Below, one piece after another: positions 5,072 to 56,198 of a DNA stretch of 64,000 nucleotides (its first letter is position 1; the number at the start of each line of letters is the position of its first letter). The notes below the pieces were generated by a model. The model was given only the letters and a program-made list of their open reading frames with translations, had not been told where the DNA came from and searched no databases. The DNA is from Salinilacihabitans rarus (GTDB lineage Archaea; Halobacteriota; Halobacteria; Halobacteriales; Natrialbaceae): contig NZ_CP100762.1 of the NCBI RefSeq assembly GCF_024296665.1, forward strand, positions 3,162,001 through 3,226,000. The letters are read 5' to 3'. The translations under genes and the position numbers were made by a program.

Positions 5072-7234
5072 ATGAGCAACGATACGAACGCTGACGACCC
5101 TCCCGAGGACGTCACCACGGAGGGGGATCCCGAGGAGGAACCCTCGGCGGGTGACCCTTCCGACGGGCAGGGCACGCACTGGTCCGCGATCGAGGACGAC
5201 GCCGAGAGCGACGGCGTCGAGGACCTCGGCCGTGACGCCGGTGACGACGAGTCGGCCGACGACGGGATCGGCGACACCGTCGAGGACCTCGGCAGCAACG
5301 TCGAGGTCGACCCGGGCGTCGAAATCGACGAGGAAGCCGAGGACGACCTCCTCGGCGGCTTGCAGATCGACTCGACCGCCGACATCGAAGTCCCCGACCG
5401 GCTCGTCGATCAGGTGATCGGCCAGGACGAGGCCCGCGACATCATCATCAAGGCGGCCAAGCAGCGCCGACACGTGATGATGATCGGCTCGCCCGGGACG
5501 GGCAAGTCGATGCTGGCGAAGGCGATGAGCCAGCTCCTCCCGAAAGAGGACCTCCAGGACGTCCTCGTCTACCACAACCCGGACGACGGCAACGAGCCGA
5601 AGGTCCGAACCGTCCCCGCGGGGAAAGGCGAACAGATCATCGAGGCCCACAAGGAGGAGGCCCGAAAGCGCAACCAGATGCGGTCGATCCTGATGTGGAT
5701 CATCATCGCGATCGTCATCGGGTACGCCATCATCAGCTCCGCCAACATCCTCCTCGGCATCCTCGCGGCCGGGATCATCTGGCTGATCTTCCGCTACACG
5801 AGCCGCGGGTCGGACGCGATGGTGCCGAACATGATCGTCAACAACGGCGATCAGCGCACGGCGCCGTTCGAGGACGCCACCGGCGCCCACGCCGGCGCGC
5901 TGCTGGGCGACGTCCGCCACGACCCCTTCCAGTCCGGCGGGATGGAGACGCCCAGCCACGACCGCGTCGAGCCCGGTTCGATCCACAAGGCCAACAAGGG
6001 CGTGTTGTTCATCGACGAGATGAACACGCTCGACATCCGCACCCAGCAGAAGCTGATGACGGCCATTCAGGAGGGCGAGTTCGCCATCACGGGTCAGTCC
6101 GAGCGCTCCTCGGGCGCGATGGTCCAGACCGAGCCCGTCCCCTGTGACTTCATCATGATCGCGGCGGGCAACCTCGACGCGATGGAGAACATGCACCCCG
6201 CGCTGCGCTCGCGGATCAAGGGCTACGGCTACGAGGTGTACATGGACGACACCATCGAGGACACCCCCGAGATGCGCCGGAAGTACGCCCGCTTCGTGGC
6301 CCAGGAGGTCGAACGCGACGGCCGCCTGCCCCACTTCACCCGCGACGCCGTCGAGGAGGTCATCCTCGAGGCGAAACGCCGCGCGGGACGGAAAGAGCAC
6401 CTCACGCTCCTGTTCCGGAACCTCGGCGGGCTGGTCCGCGTCGCGGGCGACATCGCCCGCGCCGAGGACGCCGAGTTCACGACCCGCGACCACGTCCTGC
6501 AGGCGAAAGATCGCTCGCGCTCGATCGAGCAACAGCTCGCCGACGACTACATCGAGCGCCGCAAGGACTACGAGCTGCAGGTCAACAAGGGCGGCGTCGA
6601 GGGCCGGGTCAACGGCCTCGCGGTCATGGGCGAGGACTCGGGGATCATGCTCCCCGTGATGGCCGAAATCGCGCCCGCACAGGGTCAGGGTCAGGTGATC
6701 GCCACCGGCCAGCTCAAGGAGATGGCCGAGGAGTCGGTCCAGAACGTCTCGGCGATCATCAAGAAGTTCTCCGACGTGAACCTCTCGGAGAAGGACATCC
6801 ACATCCAGTTCGTCCAGACCGGCCAGCAGGGCGTCGACGGCGACTCCGCCTCCATCACGGTGGCGACGGCCGTCATCTCGGCGCTGGAGGACATCCCGGT
6901 CGACCAGTCGGTCGCGATGACCGGGTCGCTCTCCGTGCGCGGGGACGTCCTCCCGGTCGGCGGCGTCACGCACAAGATCGAGGCCGCCGCGAAGGCCGGC
7001 TGTGACAGGGTCATCATCCCGAAGGCCAACGAACAGGACGTGATGATCGAGGACGAGTACGAGGAGATGGTCGAGATCATCCCGTGTTCGAACATCAGCG
7101 AGGTGCTCGACGTCGCGCTGATGGGCGAACCCCAGAAGGACTCGCTGGTCGACCGCCTCAAACAGATCACCGGCTCCGCGTTCGACAGTCAGGGGCAGGT
7201 CACCCGCGGCGGTTCGAGCCCGAGCCCGCAGTAG
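5072..7234 (+). CDS. lonB: Membrane-anchored ATP-dependent protease LonB
   Basis: A 720-residue archaeal Lon. An acidic N-terminal tail (residues 1-100) precedes the AAA+ domain with Walker A GSPGTGKS at about 138-145. Two transmembrane segments (about 207-243) are inserted inside the AAA+ domain, which tethers the hexamer to the inner face of the membrane. Walker B ([11 protein letters not shown]) follows near 310. The C-terminal protease has the Ser-Lys dyad: Ser592 in [10 protein letters not shown] and Lys635 in [14 protein letters not shown]. LonB is the main membrane protease of haloarchaea, controlling for example carotenoid-synthesis enzymes. A CAAX-type protease gene follows after 5 nt, suggesting one operon. 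Confidence 0.96.
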
Positions 7235-7239
7235 CGTCG

Positions 7240-8139
7240 ATGACCCAGTGGACGACGTTCGCCGGTCTGACGGGCGTCGTCCTCGCGTTGCTTCTCGCGC
7301 TCTCCGTTCTCACCCAGCGGGAGTTCGCGGCGTCCGAATCGTCCGGTCGAGAGCCATCGCCGACCGACCGCGTCTCGACCGGGTCCGTCCCCGGCCCCGC
7401 CGCCCCGGACCGGCCGGCAGACGCGCGGGCCGCGACGGGCCCGGACGCGGTTTCGGAGCGCGCCGAGGACGTCGGCGGACCGGGGAGCCGAGCCGACGGG
7501 GCCGCCGGGCCGTCGGCGACGGACCCCCGAAACCTCTCGACGGGGGCGCTGCTGGCGAACGTCGCGCTCTCGCAGGGGGTGTTCGCGGCGGTGTTGTTCG
7601 GGGCCGCGGTCTACACCGGCGTGCCGGCGGCGGCGCTCGGCATCTCCTTCGACGCGGCGTCTCTCGCGAACGACGTGGTCGTCGGGGTCGGCCTCGGCGC
7701 CGGGCTCTACGTGGCGAACGAACTCGGCGCGGCGGCGGCGAAGCGCCTCGGCGTCGACCACGACGAGGAACTCCGCGAGCTACTGGCGCCGGACTCCGCG
7801 GGCGGCTGGCTCGTCCTGTTGCTGGTCGTCCTGCCGGTCATCGCGGCCTTCGAGGAGTTCCTCTTCCGGGCGGCGCTGATCGGCGCGTTCTCGGCGGGCT
7901 TTGGCCTCTCGCCGTGGCTGCTGGTCGTCGGCTCGTCGGTCGCGTTCGCGGCGGGCCACGGGATGCAGGGGACCGCGGGCGTCGCCGTCACGGGGCTGCT
8001 CGGCCTCGTGCTGGGCGCGGCGTTCGTCCTCACCGGTAGCCTGCTGGTCGTGGTCGTCGCCCACTACCTCGTCAACGCCGTCGAGTTCGTCGTCCACGAG
8101 GGGCTCGGGATCGAGTGGGCCGCGACCACCGAAAGCTAA
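7240..8139 (+). CDS. CPBP/CAAX-type intramembrane protease
   Basis: A 299-residue integral membrane protein with about seven hydrophobic segments. A long Pro/Ala-rich hydrophilic loop lies after the first one (residues 25-90). The ABI/CPBP motif is visible: FEEFLFRAALIGAF near 205 (the EExxxR type), then AAGHGMQGTAG with a catalytic His and HYLVNAVEF near the end. These are the glutamate/histidine residues of Rce1-like intramembrane proteases. It starts 5 nt after lonB stops and is likely co-transcribed, forming a membrane-proteolysis pair. The substrate is unknown; prenyl-protein CAAX processing should not be assumed in archaea. Confidence 0.88.
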   Translation: MTQWTTFAGLTGVVLALLLALSVLTQREFAASESSGREPSPTDRVSTGSVPGPAAPDRPADARAATGPDAVSERAEDVGGPGSRADGAAGPSATDPRNLSTGALLANVALSQGVFAAVLFGAAVYTGVPAAALGISFDAASLANDVVVGVGLGAGLYVANELGAAAAKRLGVDHDEELRELLAPDSAGGWLVLLLVVLPVIAAFEEFLFRAALIGAFSAGFGLSPWLLVVGSSVAFAAGHGMQGTAGVAVTGLLGLVLGAAFVLTGSLLVVVVAHYLVNAVEFVVHEGLGIEWAATTES

Positions 8140-8164
8140 GGTCTCCGCCTCCGTTCGCCCGGGC

Positions 8165-8518
8165 ATGTCGACGAACTCGTTCGAGGACGTTCCGCCGTGG
8201 GTGCGGCGGGCGGTGCTCGTCACGATCGTTGCCTACTTCGCGCTGGTGATCTACGCGACCGCCACGGGCGACCCGGTGGCGAACCTGACGGCGGACGCGC
8301 TGTTCGGCGTCGTCGCGATCGGTATCGGCGGGATGCTCTTCCTGCGCGCGGCGGATCGGACGTCGCCGCTCGCGGCGGCGGGGTTCAGCCTGATCACCGG
8401 CGGCATCGCGCAGTTCGCGTGGGTCGTCTCGCGCGAACCGGCGTTCGAACTGCTCTCGACGATCGCCGTCCTCTTCGGGATCGGCCTCTACGCGTACGTG
8501 ATCTGGGCCGCGAGCTGA
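8165..8518 (+). CDS. Small four-helix membrane protein, unknown
   Basis: A 117-residue protein with a short hydrophilic head (MSTNSFEDVPPWVRR) and four hydrophobic helices covering residues 15-35, 42-60, 67-85 and 93-114. It follows the CAAX protease by 25 nt on the same strand, so it may be the third gene of the lonB operon. It is convergent with the alkyltransferase-like gene, and the two stop codons are directly adjacent (8518/8519). No family motif is recognised. Confidence 0.7.
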   Translation: MSTNSFEDVPPWVRRAVLVTIVAYFALVIYATATGDPVANLTADALFGVVAIGIGGMLFLRAADRTSPLAAAGFSLITGGIAQFAWVVSREPAFELLSTIAVLFGIGLYAYVIWAAS

Positions 8519-8995
8519 TCAGAGTTCCTCGAGCGACCGCAGTTTCTGTTCGACGGCCGGCGGGGCGGCGCTGGGGCCGTCCCGGACGCGGTGGTCGGGG
8601 ATCAAAATCGGCGCGGGGTTGCCGTCGAGGGCGGTGCGCACGAGGATGACGTCGTCGTCGTCCTCGGGGTCGAGGTCGGGGGTCATTCGGGCGAGCGCCT
8701 TCACGTCGACCTGCTCGCCGTAGGGGATGGTCCGGACGGTTTCGAGCACCCGGCGCTGGTCGGTCGGGACGGTGAGCGCGACCTGGACGTCGTCGAACGC
8801 CACCTCGTGGACGCCGTCGAGGTACTCGAAGATCCGTTCGAGTATCGGGTGGTCCGTCCCGGTGTCGGCGTCGTCGTCGGGATTCTCCGGGAACGAGACG
8901 CGCAGCACCCGTCCGCTCGCGACGCCGACCTGCACGAACCGTTCGAGGTACGGCGACTGCCGGGCGTAGATGCCCGCCTCCGATACGTCCTCCAT
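8519..8995 (-). CDS. Alkyltransferase-like (MGMT/Ogt-type) protein lacking the acceptor Cys
   Basis: A 158-residue protein whose C-terminal half aligns by eye with the O6-alkylguanine-DNA alkyltransferase domain: TIPYGEQVDVKALAR, then a DNA-binding region, then PAPILIPDHRVRDG. In active enzymes the last motif is IPCHRV with an alkyl-accepting Cys; here that residue is Asp134. The Arg-finger helix region is also shortened. It may act like ATL proteins, which bind alkylated bases without repairing them; those usually have Trp there. The start at 8995 fits a TATTCAAG box at 9022-9029; an in-frame ATG at 9007 would add four residues. It is divergent from trpC. Confidence 0.75.
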   Translation of the reverse strand: MEDVSEAGIYARQSPYLERFVQVGVASGRVLRVSFPENPDDDADTGTDHPILERIFEYLDGVHEVAFDDVQVALTVPTDQRRVLETVRTIPYGEQVDVKALARMTPDLDPEDDDDVILVRTALDGNPAPILIPDHRVRDGPSAAPPAVEQKLRSLEEL

Positions 8996-9060
8996 GTGGC
9001 TCCCCATGGCCGGGTCCGACTTGAATAGTTCGCCGCGGGACCGCCGCGTCGCAAGGCTTT

Positions 9061-9086
9061 TGTACACATGAGTACGTTGATGTACA
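9061..9086 (+). promoter_or_regulatory. Two TGTACA boxes in the trpCBA promoter
   Basis: TGTACA occurs at 9061-9066 and again at 9081-9086, exactly 20 bp apart (about two helical turns). They immediately precede the trpC ATG at 9090. The first overlaps the likely TATA region (CTTTTGTA), the second the probable transcription start. TGTACA is the TRP-box consensus bound by TrpY in Methanothermobacter, so a tryptophan-responsive repressor site is plausible. Confidence 0.6.
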
Positions 9087-9089
9087 ACA

Positions 9090-9859
9090 ATGAACTCCGA
9101 AACGGAGCTGGCACCGGCGGTGCGATCCATCATCGCGGCCGCCCGGGACCGAACGGGGGGCGAGCGCGTCGCCGTCGACGCGCGGCCGCTGGCCCCGGCG
9201 CTCGCGGCGGCGGCCGCCGACGGCCGCGCGCCGGTGATCGCCGAGGTGAAGCCGACGAGTCCGACCGCGGCGGGAACGCGTGCGGACGACCCCGTCGAAC
9301 TGGCCGCGGCGATGGTCGAGGGCGGCGCGGCCGCCCTCTCGGTGCTCACCGAACCGACGCACTTCGGCGGCTCGCCCGAGGCGCTGGCCCGGGTGCGCGA
9401 GGCCGTCGACGTCCCCGTGTTGCGAAAGGACTTCGTGCTGCGCGAGGAGCACCTCGACGTCGTCGCGGCGGACCTGATCCTGCTGATCGCCCGCTTCGTC
9501 GAGGACGACCTCGACTCGCTGCTCTCGGCCGCCCGCGAGCGCGGCTTCGAGGTCCTCGTCGAGGTCCACGACCGCGCGGAACTCCGGGCGGCGCTCGACG
9601 CGGGCGCGGATATCGTCGGCGTGAACAACCGCGACCTCGCCCGCCTCGACGTGGATCTGGAGACGTTCGAGCGGGTGGCGCCCCACGTTCCCGACGACGT
9701 CACCCTGCTCGCCGAGAGCGGTATCGCGACGCCCGCGGACGTCCGGCGGATGCGCGCGGCGGGCGCCGACGGCCTGCTGGTCGGGAGCGCGATCATGGAC
9801 CACGGCGCCGAGGGGAGCGACGTCCGCGAGAACACCCGGCGGCTGACGGAGGGGTCGGC

Positions 9860-50319: not shown

Positions 50320-50640
50320 TTAGGCGACGATAATGTCGTCGACGCCTGACTCTTCTTCGTCCTCCTCGTGGCGCTCGTCGCCTTTATGAGCTTCGGCCGT
50401 CGCCTCCGCCACGTCGTCCGGTTCGGCCTCCAGCGACTCGGCCACCTCGTCGGCCTCGTCGGCCTCGTCGGCCTCGCCCGCCCGCCGCTCGGGGACCCGC
50501 GTCGGCGTCTCGGCGTCGAGCGCCGCCTCGAGGACGCGAATGCGCTCTTTCGCCTCGACGAGTTCCTCGGTCAGCCCTTCGACCGTCGACTCCAGTTCCG
50601 CTACGGTGGACTCGAGTCGTTCGACGCGATTTTTCGACAT
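50320..50640 (-). CDS. Coiled-coil acidic protein upstream of smc
   Basis: A 106-residue protein. Residues 3-45 form a clear heptad coiled coil (RVERLESTVAELESTVEGLTEELVEAKERIRVLE, quoted by its Leu/Val heptads). Then come an acidic, Ala/Glu-rich disordered part with an EADEADEADE repeat and a conserved-looking C-terminus, GVDDIIVA. It lies 66 nt upstream of smc on the same strand behind a good promoter and is the first gene of the condensin operon. A similar small gene (DUF7518-type) is annotated next to smc in other haloarchaea. A role with SMC is guilt by association. Confidence 0.8.
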   Translation of the reverse strand: MSKNRVERLESTVAELESTVEGLTEELVEAKERIRVLEAALDAETPTRVPERRAGEADEADEADEVAESLEAEPDDVAEATAEAHKGDERHEEDEEESGVDDIIVA

Positions 50641-52539: not shown

Positions 52540-53289
52540 TCAGTGGCGCCGTCTACCGAGCGCCGTTCCGACGATCGCGATCGCAGCGATCGCTGTCGCG
52601 ATTCCGAATCCCGGCTGGGGCTCCACGCCGCTCGTCTCCGCCGGCGTGACGACGGCTTCGTACCCCTCGAGCGAGGTACTCGAGTTCCAGACGAGGCGCC
52701 GATCGTCTCGGTCGGTCGGCGCCGGTGTCGCGCTCTCGAGCGCATACCCCTCCGGGAGGTGCACGACGACGGTTCGGTCGGGCGCGAACCCGGTGGCGAA
52801 CGGCTCGCCGAGGGTCAACCGATCGCCCTCGACCGCCGCGAGGGAACGCCAGGTCGCCGAAACGGTGACGATACCGCGCTCGTTCGCCTCGTCGACCTCG
52901 AACGAGACGTCGGCGTCTTCGAGCGTCATCTCGCGGTCCGTCTCCTCGGTCGCTTCCGCCGCGACGGCTCGCAATCGGCGTTCGGTTCGGTTTTCGAGTC
53001 GCTCCCGTTTCGTCTCGTTCTCTCGGAGTGACTCGAAGGCGTCCCGGTCGGTCTCGGATTCGAGGTCGAAGCCGACGGTGACGGAGGTCGTCGCGTCGCC
53101 GTCGGCTTCGAGATCGACCACGAACGCGGAGTCCGTCGGCTGTGACGCGTCGTCCGTGGTCGCCGCGCGAGCGCCGACGCCGCCGATCACGCTCCCGAGC
53201 AGGACGACCGCGACGAGCGCGGCGGTCAGCGTTCGCGGAACGAGCGACGGCGAATCGGTTCGCCGAGCCCGGTCAGTCCGCCGATTCAT
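52540..53289 (-). CDS. Exported surface protein with C-terminal anchor, shares a domain with the HTH protein at 55053
   Basis: A 249-residue protein. A signal peptide (TALVAVVLLGSVIGGVGARA) precedes a beta-rich domain containing a helical insert (ESLRENETKRERLENRTERRL) and NERGIVTVSATWRSLAAVEGDRL. FATGFAPDRTVVVHLPEGY follows, then a C-terminal hydrophobic helix (GIATAIAAIAIVGTALGRRRH) like a cell-surface sorting anchor. The motif order TVSATW..LAAV.GD...G..FA.GF recurs in the ectodomain of the divergent regulator at 55053-56198. It starts inside the end of the gene at 53273-54886 (17-nt overlap), so both are one operon. Confidence 0.75.
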   Translation of the reverse strand: MNRRTDRARRTDSPSLVPRTLTAALVAVVLLGSVIGGVGARAATTDDASQPTDSAFVVDLEADGDATTSVTVGFDLESETDRDAFESLRENETKRERLENRTERRLRAVAAEATEETDREMTLEDADVSFEVDEANERGIVTVSATWRSLAAVEGDRLTLGEPFATGFAPDRTVVVHLPEGYALESATPAPTDRDDRRLVWNSSTSLEGYEAVVTPAETSGVEPQPGFGIATAIAAIAIVGTALGRRRH

Positions 53290-54886
53290 CGTCGTCTTCG
53301 TCGTCCGTCTCATCACCGTCGGATTCCGATTCGACTTCGGTCTCGTCGTCCTCGCCGTCTTCTTCGTCTTCGCCGTCTTCGTCGTCCTCGCCGTCCTCGC
53401 CGTCCTCGTCGCCGTCTTCGATCACCTCTCCGTCGGGGCCTAGTTCGAGTTCGGTCTCGAGTTCGCCGCTGACGACCTCGATCTCGAGTTCGTCCTCGCC
53501 GTCGGAAAGCTCGAACGGGAACGACGCCGTACCGCTCTCGTCGGTGGTGCCGTTCCAGCCGTCCGTGGTCACCGTGGCACCCGAGACGGGCTCCCCGTCG
53601 AACGTCACGGCGATCGTCACGGTTCCGTTTTCGACCGTCGCGTTCGCCCCGAACCGCGAGTCGTTCTCGCGCTCGTCGTCGACGTCGAATTCGAGTTCGG
53701 CGTCGGCGTCGCCGTACTCGGCTTCGACGTCGACGTCTCCGCTGGGCAGAGCGACGGTGATCGTGCCGTCGTCGTTCGTTTCGCCGACCGACTGGTCGTC
53801 GACCGTGACGGTCGCGCCGGGTGCCGGCCGTCCGTCGGCGAGCACGACGAGCGTCACCTGTTCGCCCGGGTTCGGCGTCCCCTCGTCGACGAGGACGACC
53901 AGCCGCGTATCGCCGTCTTCGCCGTCCTCGTCGTCATCTTCGTCGTCGTCCTCGTCGTCATCTTCGTCGTCGTCCTCGTCGTCACCTTCGTCGTCGTCCT
54001 CGTCGTCGTCACGCGCAGCGATCTCTTCCTCGAGGGCGACGACGGTTCCGCTCTCGCCGTCGACGCTCACTTCGGCTTCGCCGACCTCGGAACCCGTGAG
54101 GACGAACTCGAACTCGTAGAGTCCGTCGTCGGTCTCCCCCTCCTCGACGATCCAGGTTCCGTTCGCATCCGAGAGGGCGTCCTCGGCGACGGCGAGCGCG
54201 TCCGACTGGCTGATCGCCAGCGTCCCGTTGCCGTCGTGTGGCCGCTCGAACTCGCGGCTTCGCTCGCCGTCCTCGCTTTCGACCTCGATCGACACGCCGT
54301 CGTCGACTTCGACCTCGACTTCGCCGCGTTCCTCGCCGGTGAACTGCCGGAGGAGCGCCCCGGACCCAGCGCCCGTCAGTTGCGTCGCCGACGCTTTCTC
54401 GTCGGCCAGCGCCGTCTCGTTCACGCCGGCCGCGGCGAGTTCGTAGTCGTCGACCTCCGCGGCTCGTTCCTCGAGTCGGTCGTAACTCTTCACGATGCCC
54501 TGTGCGCGGGCGTTCAGCGACGCGAGCCGCTTGGCGTACGCCGACTTGTCGAGTTCGCCGTTCCGGTAGGCCTCCGTGGCGGCCTCGTACTCCGCCCGAA
54601 GCGCCGCCGAGCGGTTCTCGAGAGCCGCCGCGCGGTCCGCGATCGCCGCCGCACGGGCGCTCTCGTTGCCGCGTTCCATCCGTTCGTCGAACGCGGTGTT
54701 CTCGAATTCGGTACGAACTTCGTCGCTCGTGGCGGTGACGACCGTCGACAACTGCGCGCCGGCGGTGACGTCGACGCCATCGTCGCCCTGTCGATCGTCA
54801 GTCGACGCCCCGGCGACGACCGCCGGGCCGACCATGCTCGTACAGAGCAACGCGGCCATCGCGACGAGTAGGATTGATCGTCTCAT
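53273..54886 (-). CDS. Large exported acidic protein with PepSY-like and Ig-like domains
   Basis: A 537-residue secreted protein. The order is: signal peptide (SILLVAMAALLCTSMVGPAVVAGA), a helical domain (about 40-185), a PepSY-like unit (DALAVAEDALSDANGTWIV ... VSVDGESGTVVALEEEI, about 205-265) and an Asp/Glu-only linker (about 295-325). Two Ig-like repeats follow (GEQVTLVVLADGRPAPGATVTVDD; VTIAVTFDGEPVSGATVTTDG), then a long acidic tail. No C-terminal anchor is visible. Asn-x-Ser/Thr sites suggest N-glycosylation. It is the first gene of a minus-strand operon with the surface protein at 52540, divergent from the regulator at 55053. The linker coding DNA is a 24-bp tandem repeat. Confidence 0.75.
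   Translation of the reverse strand: MRRSILLVAMAALLCTSMVGPAVVAGASTDDRQGDDGVDVTAGAQLSTVVTATSDEVRTEFENTAFDERMERGNESARAAAIADRAAALENRSAALRAEYEAATEAYRNGELDKSAYAKRLASLNARAQGIVKSYDRLEERAAEVDDYELAAAGVNETALADEKASATQLTGAGSGALLRQFTGEERGEVEVEVDDGVSIEVESEDGERSREFERPHDGNGTLAISQSDALAVAEDALSDANGTWIVEEGETDDGLYEFEFVLTGSEVGEAEVSVDGESGTVVALEEEIAARDDDEDDDEGDDEDDDEDDDEDDDEDDDEDGEDGDTRLVVLVDEGTPNPGEQVTLVVLADGRPAPGATVTVDDQSVGETNDDGTITVALPSGDVDVEAEYGDADAELEFDVDDERENDSRFGANATVENGTVTIAVTFDGEPVSGATVTTDGWNGTTDESGTASFPFELSDGEDELEIEVVSGELETELELGPDGEVIEDGDEDGEDGEDDEDGEDEEDGEDDETEVESESDGDETDDEDDDESAD
53926..53997 (-). repeat. Tandem 24-bp repeat encoding an acidic linker
   Basis: Three copies of a 24-bp unit (starts CCTCGTCGTCATCTTCGTC on the plus strand) lie end to end at 53926, 53950 and 53974. 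The first two are identical and the third has one change. They encode DDDEDDDE-type linker in the gene above. In-frame copy-number change could lengthen or shorten the linker. Confidence 0.85.
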
Positions 54887-55024
54887 CGTCGATCCGGTCT
54901 CTCTCCGGGACCGACATAAACCGTCGTCACCGTTGTCGCGATTTCCGTCGAGTTGCACGACTTCCCCGTCTCCGTCGGACGTTTGTGCCGGATTGCAGCG
55001 GTTTGCAAGCGGTCGGTCAGCACG

Positions 55025-55030
55025 CTTATA
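55025..55030 (+). promoter_or_regulatory. TATA-like box for the membrane HTH regulator
   Basis: CTTATA is centred about 25 nt before the GTG start at 55053. The transcript is therefore probably leaderless. The 166-bp space to the divergent surface-protein gene (ATG at 54886) must hold both promoters. Confidence 0.55.
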
Positions 55031-55052
55031 CTGCCCCTCTCGAAACTGTCAC

Positions 55053-56198
55053 GTGAGCGTGAGAGTCACGACTGATCGAGTCGTCGTGGTCGTTCTCGTC
55101 GTGGCGGCCGTCCTCTCGCTCGCTCCCGTCGGGACCTCCGCTGCTCCCGCTTCGGACGGGACCACCCGGGCTGCGGTCGAGGACGTACCCACGGCTGACA
55201 CGACCGTCACACGAATCGAGGTCGCGGCCGACGGGTCGGCCCGCTGGTCGGTGACGGTCCGAACGCGACTCGAGGACGACGCCGACGTCGCCGACTACGA
55301 GGCCTTCCAGGAGCGATTCCGTGCCGACCGGGAGGCGTACGCCGATCGGTTCGAACGGCGCATGACCGGCGTCGTCTCGAACGCGGCGGACGCGACCGGG
55401 CGGAACATGACCGCAACGGAGTTCCGCGTGCGGACGTCGATCCAGGAGGTCCCGAGACGGTGGGGCGTCGTCACCTACTCGTTCACCTGGACGAACTTCG
55501 CCGCCGTCGACGGAGAGGCCGTCGTCGTCGGCGACGTGTTCGAGGGCGGGTTCTACCTCGACGACGACGACAGCCTCCAACTCGTGCCGCCCCAGGGGTA
55601 CGTGGCGACGTCGGTCTCGCCGTCGCCGGACGAGGTCGACGGCACGACGGCAGTCTGGATCGGCCCGGACAACTTCGCCGCCCGGCAACCGACCGCCCGC
55701 TTCGAGCCCACAGAAGCGAGCGACGGTTCGGACGGTTTCGGCCTCGGTCCGGTCGGGTCCGCGATCGTCGATGGCGGGGCCGTCCCCGTCGGCCTCGTCT
55801 TGGCCGTCGTGATAGTGGCCGTCGGCGTCTCCTTCGCGCGGCAGCGTGGCGTCGTCGCCCCGGTCGCGTCTCGGCTCTCGTCACCCGAGTTGGCGTCCGA
55901 ATCCGCCGACGCCGACGCCGACGCCGACGACGACGACGAGGCGGCGGGCGACGCCGGGCAGCCGAGCGAACCGATCGGGCGGGCGCCGTCGCCCGACCTC
56001 GCGACCGACGACGACCGGGTTCTGGCGCTGCTCGAACGCAACGGCGGCCGAATGCGACAGGCGACTATCGCCGAGGAACTCGAGTGGTCCGCCTCGAAGA
56101 CGTCTCGAGTCGTCTCCAGGATGGCAGACGAGGGCACCGTCGAGAAGCTTCGAGTCGGTCGCGAGAACGTCATCGACCTCTGCGAGGGGGACGACTGA
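55053..56198 (+). CDS. Membrane-anchored winged-helix regulator with an extracytoplasmic sensor domain
   Basis: A 381-residue protein starting at GTG 55053. A signal/anchor (VVVVVLVVAAVLSLAPVG) precedes an ectodomain (about 30-240) with the same motif series as the surface protein at 52540. The clearest stretch is GVVTYSFTWTNFAAVDGEAVVVGDVFEGGF. Then come one transmembrane helix (VGLVLAVVIVAVGVSFA, about 255-272), an acidic linker and a C-terminal winged helix (LLERNGGRMRQATIAEELEWSASKTSRVVSRMADEG). The topology places the sensor outside and the DNA-binding domain inside. It probably regulates the divergent operon and perhaps itself. Confidence 0.82.
   Translation: MSVRVTTDRVVVVVLVVAAVLSLAPVGTSAAPASDGTTRAAVEDVPTADTTVTRIEVAADGSARWSVTVRTRLEDDADVADYEAFQERFRADREAYADRFERRMTGVVSNAADATGRNMTATEFRVRTSIQEVPRRWGVVTYSFTWTNFAAVDGEAVVVGDVFEGGFYLDDDDSLQLVPPQGYVATSVSPSPDEVDGTTAVWIGPDNFAARQPTARFEPTEASDGSDGFGLGPVGSAIVDGGAVPVGLVLAVVIVAVGVSFARQRGVVAPVASRLSSPELASESADADADADDDDEAAGDAGQPSEPIGRAPSPDLATDDDRVLALLERNGGRMRQATIAEELEWSASKTSRVVSRMADEGTVEKLRVGRENVIDLCEGDD

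What the first reader, a model, noticed from the sequence alone, without database searches (positions are those of the whole stretch)
52540..56198. Divergent surface-protein/membrane-regulator module sharing one ectodomain
The surface protein at 52540-53289 and the regulator at 55053-56198 have the same extracytoplasmic domain (GxVTxSxTWxxxAAVxGD, then a GF-containing segment). The first ends in a membrane/sorting anchor, the second in a transmembrane helix and a DNA-binding winged helix. Between them, divergent from the regulator, lies a large secreted protein with PepSY-like, Ig-like and acidic linker parts. A sensor sharing its ligand domain with a surface protein could sense by competition, heterodimer formation or decoy.
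Basis: partly seen in the sequence, partly recalled or inferred. Interest (0 to 1): 0.7.

Follow-up and report, generated by a model that had tools for sequence, protein, structure and literature searches.

The report
Haloarchaeal membrane regulator with ectodomain twin
A widespread but unstudied set of neighbouring genes in salt-loving archaea encodes a membrane-spanning gene regulator, a secreted protein and, in many cases, a surface protein with the same outer domain as the regulator; DNA repeated every 10 bases in front of them looks like the switch, so the set may be a self-regulating sensor of the cell envelope.

Summary
A (52540-53289, -) and C (55053-56198, +) share Pfam DUF7345; A ends in a PGF-CTERM-like anchor, C in a transmembrane helix plus DUF7343 winged helix. 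B (53273-54886, -) is a secreted helical-bundle/PepSY/Ig-like protein. The unit is conserved. In 50 Halobacteriales genomes 65 of 79 DUF7096 (B-type) hits lie within 3 kb of a DUF7345 gene, usually divergent from a C or in tandem behind one. A is an optional third gene; where A and B both appear (6 cases) A is on B's strand. All 33 A ectodomains sampled form one clade apart from 64 C ectodomains, yet A and C distances run in parallel (Mantel r 0.79) and the unit has moved as a block. So A is an old specialised paralogue, not a recent truncation. It recurs across genera, and its unit appears to change with C's recognition helix. Best reading: C is a membrane-anchored one-component regulator of the B-A operon, acting at the array; A probably modulates C or shares its ligand. 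Ligand, sign of regulation and A-C contact are unproven. No paper found names these families.

The parts
52540..53289 (-). Gene A: surface protein, signal sequence + DUF7345 ectodomain (about 52744-53118) + PGF-CTERM-like anchor (about 52546-52623); ATG at 53289, an in-frame GTG at 53316 is possible
53273..54886 (-). Gene B: secreted protein; helical bundle with DUF7096 similarity (about 54338-54748), PepSY-like domain (about 54014-54322), acidic linker, two Ig-like domains (about 53684-53902 and 53441-53650), acidic tail; overlaps the start of A by 17 bp
55053..56198 (+). Gene C: membrane-anchored regulator; signal sequence, DUF7345 ectodomain (about 55200-55709), TM helix (about 55791-55847), disordered charged linker, DUF7343 winged helix (about 55998-56180); GTG start
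54930..55009 (.). Candidate operator: direct-repeat array, TT[TG]C core on the + strand; best block TTGT/TTGC/TTGC at 54983, 54993, 55003, further cores at 54942 and 54953 (11 bp apart). Degenerate in the window copy; defined by comparison with orthologues
54914..54922 (-). TATA-like element of B (GGTTTATG on the - strand), about 28-36 bp upstream of the B start codon
   Evidence: read directly
55025..55033 (+). TATA-like element of C (CTTATACTG), about 20-28 bp upstream of the C start codon, as in a leaderless transcript
   Evidence: read directly

Best explanation
A-B-C is a dedicated membrane-anchored one-component regulatory unit of the haloarchaeal cell envelope. C is a type I membrane protein: an outside DUF7345 sensor domain, one TM helix, a flexible linker and a cytoplasmic winged helix. 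Several winged helices bind cooperatively, on one face of the DNA, to the 10-bp-phased array next to the B (and, in divergent units, C) core promoter. They thereby control the B-A operon, and C itself where divergent. B and, where present, A are the outputs: a secreted multidomain protein and a membrane-anchored DUF7345 protein. A probably feeds back on C by binding the same outside partner or ligand, or by pairing with C's ectodomain. Shown: domain make-up, homology, conserved gene linkage, co-divergence, conserved array. Inferred: that C binds the array, that it activates (from the position just upstream of TATA), the topology, and the A-C relation. Unknown: the stimulus.
For: Domains of A, B and C. 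DUF7345 in 115 of 117 genomes of the order. 65 of 79 DUF7096 hits lie within 3 kb of a DUF7345 gene, with 44 divergent and 15 tandem C->B relations; A on B's strand in all 6 cases where both were called. Window-type unit in many genera with unrelated flanking genes. A and C are separate clades with parallel distances, Mantel r 0.785, 0 of 5000 permutations as high; shared transfers, e.g. the unit of Natronorubrum thiooxidans groups with Halorubrum in both A and C. Array: 37 exact TTKC-N6-TTKC-N6-TTKC triples in 1.4 Mb of loci against 0, 1, 0, 1, 0 at spacings 8, 9, 11, 12, 13; expected 0.3 by composition; nearly all in B/C intergenic DNA. Lag 10 is the best self-match lag in 16.5 of 22 divergent and 23.5 of 40 tandem B/C regions, flat in 500 other intergenic regions. 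In the tandem loci with exact triples (L072, L077) the array keeps its orientation to B. Unit follows C's recognition helix by inspection: WSASKTSR with TGCAAAC, WSKSKTSR with CGAAACG, WTDAKTSK with GAAAACGGC/GTTGAACGGC, WTEAKTSQ and similar with GTTAATCCGG. No excess of the array genome-wide over the reversed control, so it looks like a local operator.
Against: The window's own array is weak: lag-10 self-match reached by 91 of 2000 shuffles. No binding, expression or interaction data. A is absent from many units, so C and B work without it. DUF7094-type units have the same C/B layout but no 10-bp array (10 loci). Linked genes co-diverge without touching, so the Mantel result shows a shared history, not contact. 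The helix/unit match is qualitative and confounded with phylogeny.
Confidence: 0.6

Rival explanations
1. Borrowed binding module: A is a structural or ligand-binding envelope protein, and C uses a paralogous copy of the same domain only to read the amount of that ligand. A does not act on C. This would work like RsgI anti-sigma factors, whose outside domains include CBM3 modules of the same family as in the cellulosome components.
For: A is a single old clade with its own invariant residues. Precedent read in PMC4711584.
Against: A is found almost only inside C/B units or next to decayed ones, more than a general surface protein needs.
Confidence: 0.35
2. The repeats are not C's operator: they are phased A/T steps giving DNA curvature, or the site of another regulator.
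For: 10 bp is close to one helical turn and AA/TT steps recur in the unit. DUF7094-type C genes lack the array. No binding data.
Against: Strand asymmetry (TTKC 113 on the C strand, 16 on the other), specific GC bases in the unit, no signal in 500 other intergenic regions, and a unit that varies with C's recognition helix.
Confidence: 0.2
3. A and C share a domain by ordinary paralogy and stay together only because an operon is inherited as a block; A has no functional relation to C.
For: Co-divergence and joint transfer follow from linkage alone. A is lost in several units.
Against: A has stayed with B/C in two different gene orders and across several families, in a block whose other neighbours change.
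Confidence: 0.15

Closest known systems
Membrane-bound one-component regulators: ArnR/ArnR1 of Sulfolobus; CadC and ToxR of bacteria (as described in PMC13286277, PMC5430869, PMC7496328)
   Same: One polypeptide joins an outside domain, TM and a DNA-binding HTH; ToxR works with a partner protein outside (ToxS)
   Different: ArnR and ToxR/CadC have the HTH at the N-terminus; here a MarR-like winged helix is C-terminal on a type I protein. The 10-bp-phased operator and an anchored paralogue of the sensor domain were not seen in what I read of them
RsgI anti-sigma factors of Clostridium thermocellum (PMC4711584)
   Same: The membrane sensor carries outside domains of families (CBM3, GH10) also present in secreted components
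   Different: RsgI is an anti-sigma factor; C has its own DNA-binding domain, and DUF7345 has no known ligand
BlaR1 with beta-lactamase (own knowledge, not tested)
   Same: Sensor head homologous to the protein whose expression it controls
   Different: BlaR1 acts by proteolysis of a repressor; no such parts seen here
DUF7096-DUF7094-Fn3_arc / DUF7345-DUF7343 divergent pair, nearly universal in haloarchaea (e.g. L084)
   Same: Same C architecture and same divergent layout with a DUF7096 protein
   Different: No A gene, no 10-bp array in the 10 loci tested, and the B protein there has DUF7094 and Fn3_arc in place of PepSY and Ig-like parts

Membership tests
DUF7345 (PF24036) | Profile match over the curated cut-off, A and C | tested here: met
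   A 83.5, C 120.4 bits against 27.5
DUF7343 (PF24034) winged helix | Profile match in C | tested here: met
   99.7 bits against 27.6; predicted fold MarR-like by Foldseek
DUF7096 (PF23379) | Profile match in B | tested here: met
   34 bits against 27, partial (profile 65-182 of 208); short B proteins of tandem units are mostly below the cut-off
DUF7096-DUF7094-Fn3_arc protein | DUF7094 domain present in B | tested here: not met
   No DUF7094 hit in B; Fn3_arc below its cut-off, unlike L084
PGF-CTERM / ArtA substrate | TIGR04126 over its cut-off | tested here: not met
   18.5 bits against 24.5; the motif PGF-TM-RRR is visible
PGF-CTERM / ArtA substrate | Archaeosortase A encoded in the genome | tested here: met
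   TIGR04125 E 4.8e-97
Membrane-anchored one-component regulator (functional class) | Ectodomain, TM helix and DNA-binding domain in one chain | tested here: met
Membrane-anchored one-component regulator (functional class) | Signal-dependent DNA binding | not testable with these tools
   needs protein and DNA experiments
ToxR/CadC family | N-terminal cytoplasmic winged helix, C-terminal periplasmic domain | tested here: not met
   Order is reversed in C: ectodomain first, MarR-like winged helix last

The most novel reading that the evidence does not exclude
A closed homeostatic loop across the archaeal membrane: C polymerises along a helically phased operator array from the membrane, and A, made by the operon that C controls, is an anchored decoy of C's own sensor domain that titrates the ligand or caps C's ectodomain.
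Probability: 0.3. Interest if true: 0.8.

Novelty: new variant of a known kind. Interest (0 to 1): 0.6.

Why it matters
Little is known of how haloarchaea sense the state of their envelope. This unit gives a nearly universal, unnamed family of membrane regulators a predicted operator, a predicted target operon and a testable feedback partner, so the question can be put to a genetic model such as Haloferax, where DUF7345 occurs.

Tried and rejected
Solved relatives by sequence: none convincing. Foldseek of C: FMO-protein hits have TM about 0.17 and rmsd about 14, so rejected; LppM (2nc8, TM 0.44 by target length, rmsd 6.9) is at most a weak lead for the ectodomain; the winged helix matches MarR-type folds. 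Foldseek of B: generic Ig/Fn3 matches only. FlaG hit to A (E 0.08) not pursued as evidence. Genome-wide regulon from the array: no excess over the reversed pattern in 50 genomes, one unexplained exact hit in the own genome. Array in DUF7094-type units: absent. Papers naming DUF7345/7343/7096/4897: none. CsmR (hvo_1209) looked at; nothing in the passages read links it to this family. Viral profile hits are weak and not used.

Full report
What is there. The window holds three genes between a FemAB-like gene and gatB. A (52540-53289, -) is a 249-aa protein with signal sequence, DUF7345 domain and a PGF-CTERM-like end. B (53273-54886, -) lies upstream of A and its end overlaps A's start by 17 bp. 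C (55053-56198, +) runs divergently from B and has signal sequence, DUF7345, TM helix and DUF7343 winged helix. A and C ectodomains are 32% identical over 184 aa. AlphaFold places C's ectodomain (residues about 50-219) and winged helix (about 319-376) with block pLDDT mostly above 95 and a helix at 247-265 in between. B folds as a helical bundle, a PepSY-like domain and two Ig-like domains, with disordered acidic linker and tail. A was not modelled; its fold is inferred from sequence homology.

The own genome has seven DUF7345 genes: five C-type and two A-type. The second A-type locus (L078) has B and A, five 10-bp repeat units upstream of B, and in place of C only a broken frame that still matches the winged helix (42 bits).

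How widely is it conserved? DUF7345 occurs in 115 of 117 genomes of the order; among 14 control genomes only Haloferax volcanii has it. In 50 genomes 65 of 79 DUF7096 hits are within 3 kb of a DUF7345 gene; 44 of the relations are divergent, 15 tandem C->B, 3 tandem B->C. A few sites of 6 kb in about 3 Mb would give less than one such neighbour by chance (my estimate). A-type genes are rarer; where both A and B were called, A is on B's strand (6 of 6). Named loci from GTDB genomes show the window-type unit (A and B on one strand, C divergent) in Natrinema, Halorubrum, Salinibaculum, Halorientalis, Halomicroarcula, Haloparvum, Halosegnis and others, with different flanking genes, and a tandem C-B-A form in Natronolimnohabitans, Natronorubrum and a Halococcaceae genome. 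Gene calls there come from a script of mine trained on the window; it fails on some genomes of other composition.

History of the two ectodomains. In a tree of 97 domains all 33 A and all 64 C fall on opposite sides of one branch with support 100 (quick method, SH-aLRT). The A-C split is therefore older than the spread of the unit: A did not arise by cutting down the neighbouring C in each genome. Pairwise distances in 31 loci with one A and one C correlate with r 0.785 (0 of 5000 permutations) and the nearest neighbour agrees in 16 of 31. Both trees put Natronorubrum thiooxidans (Natrialbaceae) with Halorubrum, and Halorientalis with Halobellus captivus and Halorubrum saccharovorum, which points to transfer of the whole unit. 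Of 29 window-type C rows 22 have A in the locus (counted by me from the tree). About fourteen positions are conserved in both types (for instance G61, A63, R117, M119, G138, W146, A150 and W202 in C), while others switch: C has F149, D161 and F208 where A has L, E followed by PF, and L.

The operator-like array. The B-C intergenic DNA of divergent units carries TT[TG]C on the C strand repeated every 10 bp: 56 pairs at distance 10 against 1 at 9 and 2 at 11, and 113 cores on one strand against 16 on the other. Exact triples: 37 in 1.396 Mb of loci, 0.3 expected by composition, and 0, 1, 0, 1, 0 at spacings 8, 9, 11, 12, 13; nearly all lie between B and C. Tandem units have repeats with the same 10-bp lag between C and B; where exact triples occur there (L072, L077) they keep their orientation relative to B. 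A composition-free self-match test gives lag 10 as best in 16.5 of 22 divergent and 23.5 of 40 tandem regions, while 500 other intergenic regions of the same loci show no preference. The repeat unit appears to go with C's recognition helix. This was judged by eye, and both follow phylogeny, so it is support and not proof. The window's copy is degenerate and would not stand on its own. Genome-wide there is no excess of the triple pattern over its reverse. I infer a local operator read by C. In the window it sits between the two TATA-like boxes, a position that suits an activator of both genes.

Mechanism. Shown here: homology, linkage, co-divergence, array. From known biology: outside domain plus TM plus HTH in one chain is a membrane one-component regulator, as for ArnR, CadC and ToxR (PMC13286277, PMC5430869, PMC7496328). 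Inferred: C reads an envelope signal and drives B-A. A carries a diverged copy of C's sensor domain on the outside of the membrane, so a shared ligand, a decoy role or pairing with C are all possible. The sharing of a sensor domain between a membrane regulator and secreted components has a precedent in RsgI (PMC4711584).

Verdict. The unit is a conserved, so far unnamed haloarchaeal regulatory module; its most useful new feature is the phased array, which makes the regulator-target relation directly testable.

Noticed in passing
L078 (own genome C1:1075000-1089000), about 6789-9300: Second A/B pair with a five-unit 10-bp array upstream of B but only a broken remnant of a C winged helix; possibly controlled by another C in trans.
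   Followed up: partly
L084 and L009-L038: DUF7094-type C/B units lack the 10-bp array; most of the intergenic regions extracted share an element like GGATRGAAAGCGTTTT near C.
   Followed up: partly
L088, L090, L092, L100, L103, L110, L112: A proteins of Halorubrum-type units end in a (L/A)PTP-TM-WRR/WQR-like tail without PGF; a different anchor or sorting signal.
   Followed up: no
own genome C1:1844606-1844629 (L167): The only exact TTKC triple in the own genome, at a locus with no DUF7345 gene in the stretch fetched; may be chance.
   Followed up: no
window 50320-50640: DUF7518 coiled-coil protein directly upstream of smc; the same pair is seen in L070.
   Followed up: no
G045:C1:2581721-2581764 and G022:C1:2388318-2388351: Overlapping TTTC arrays with 10-bp period, not near a listed DUF7345 hit.
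   Followed up: no
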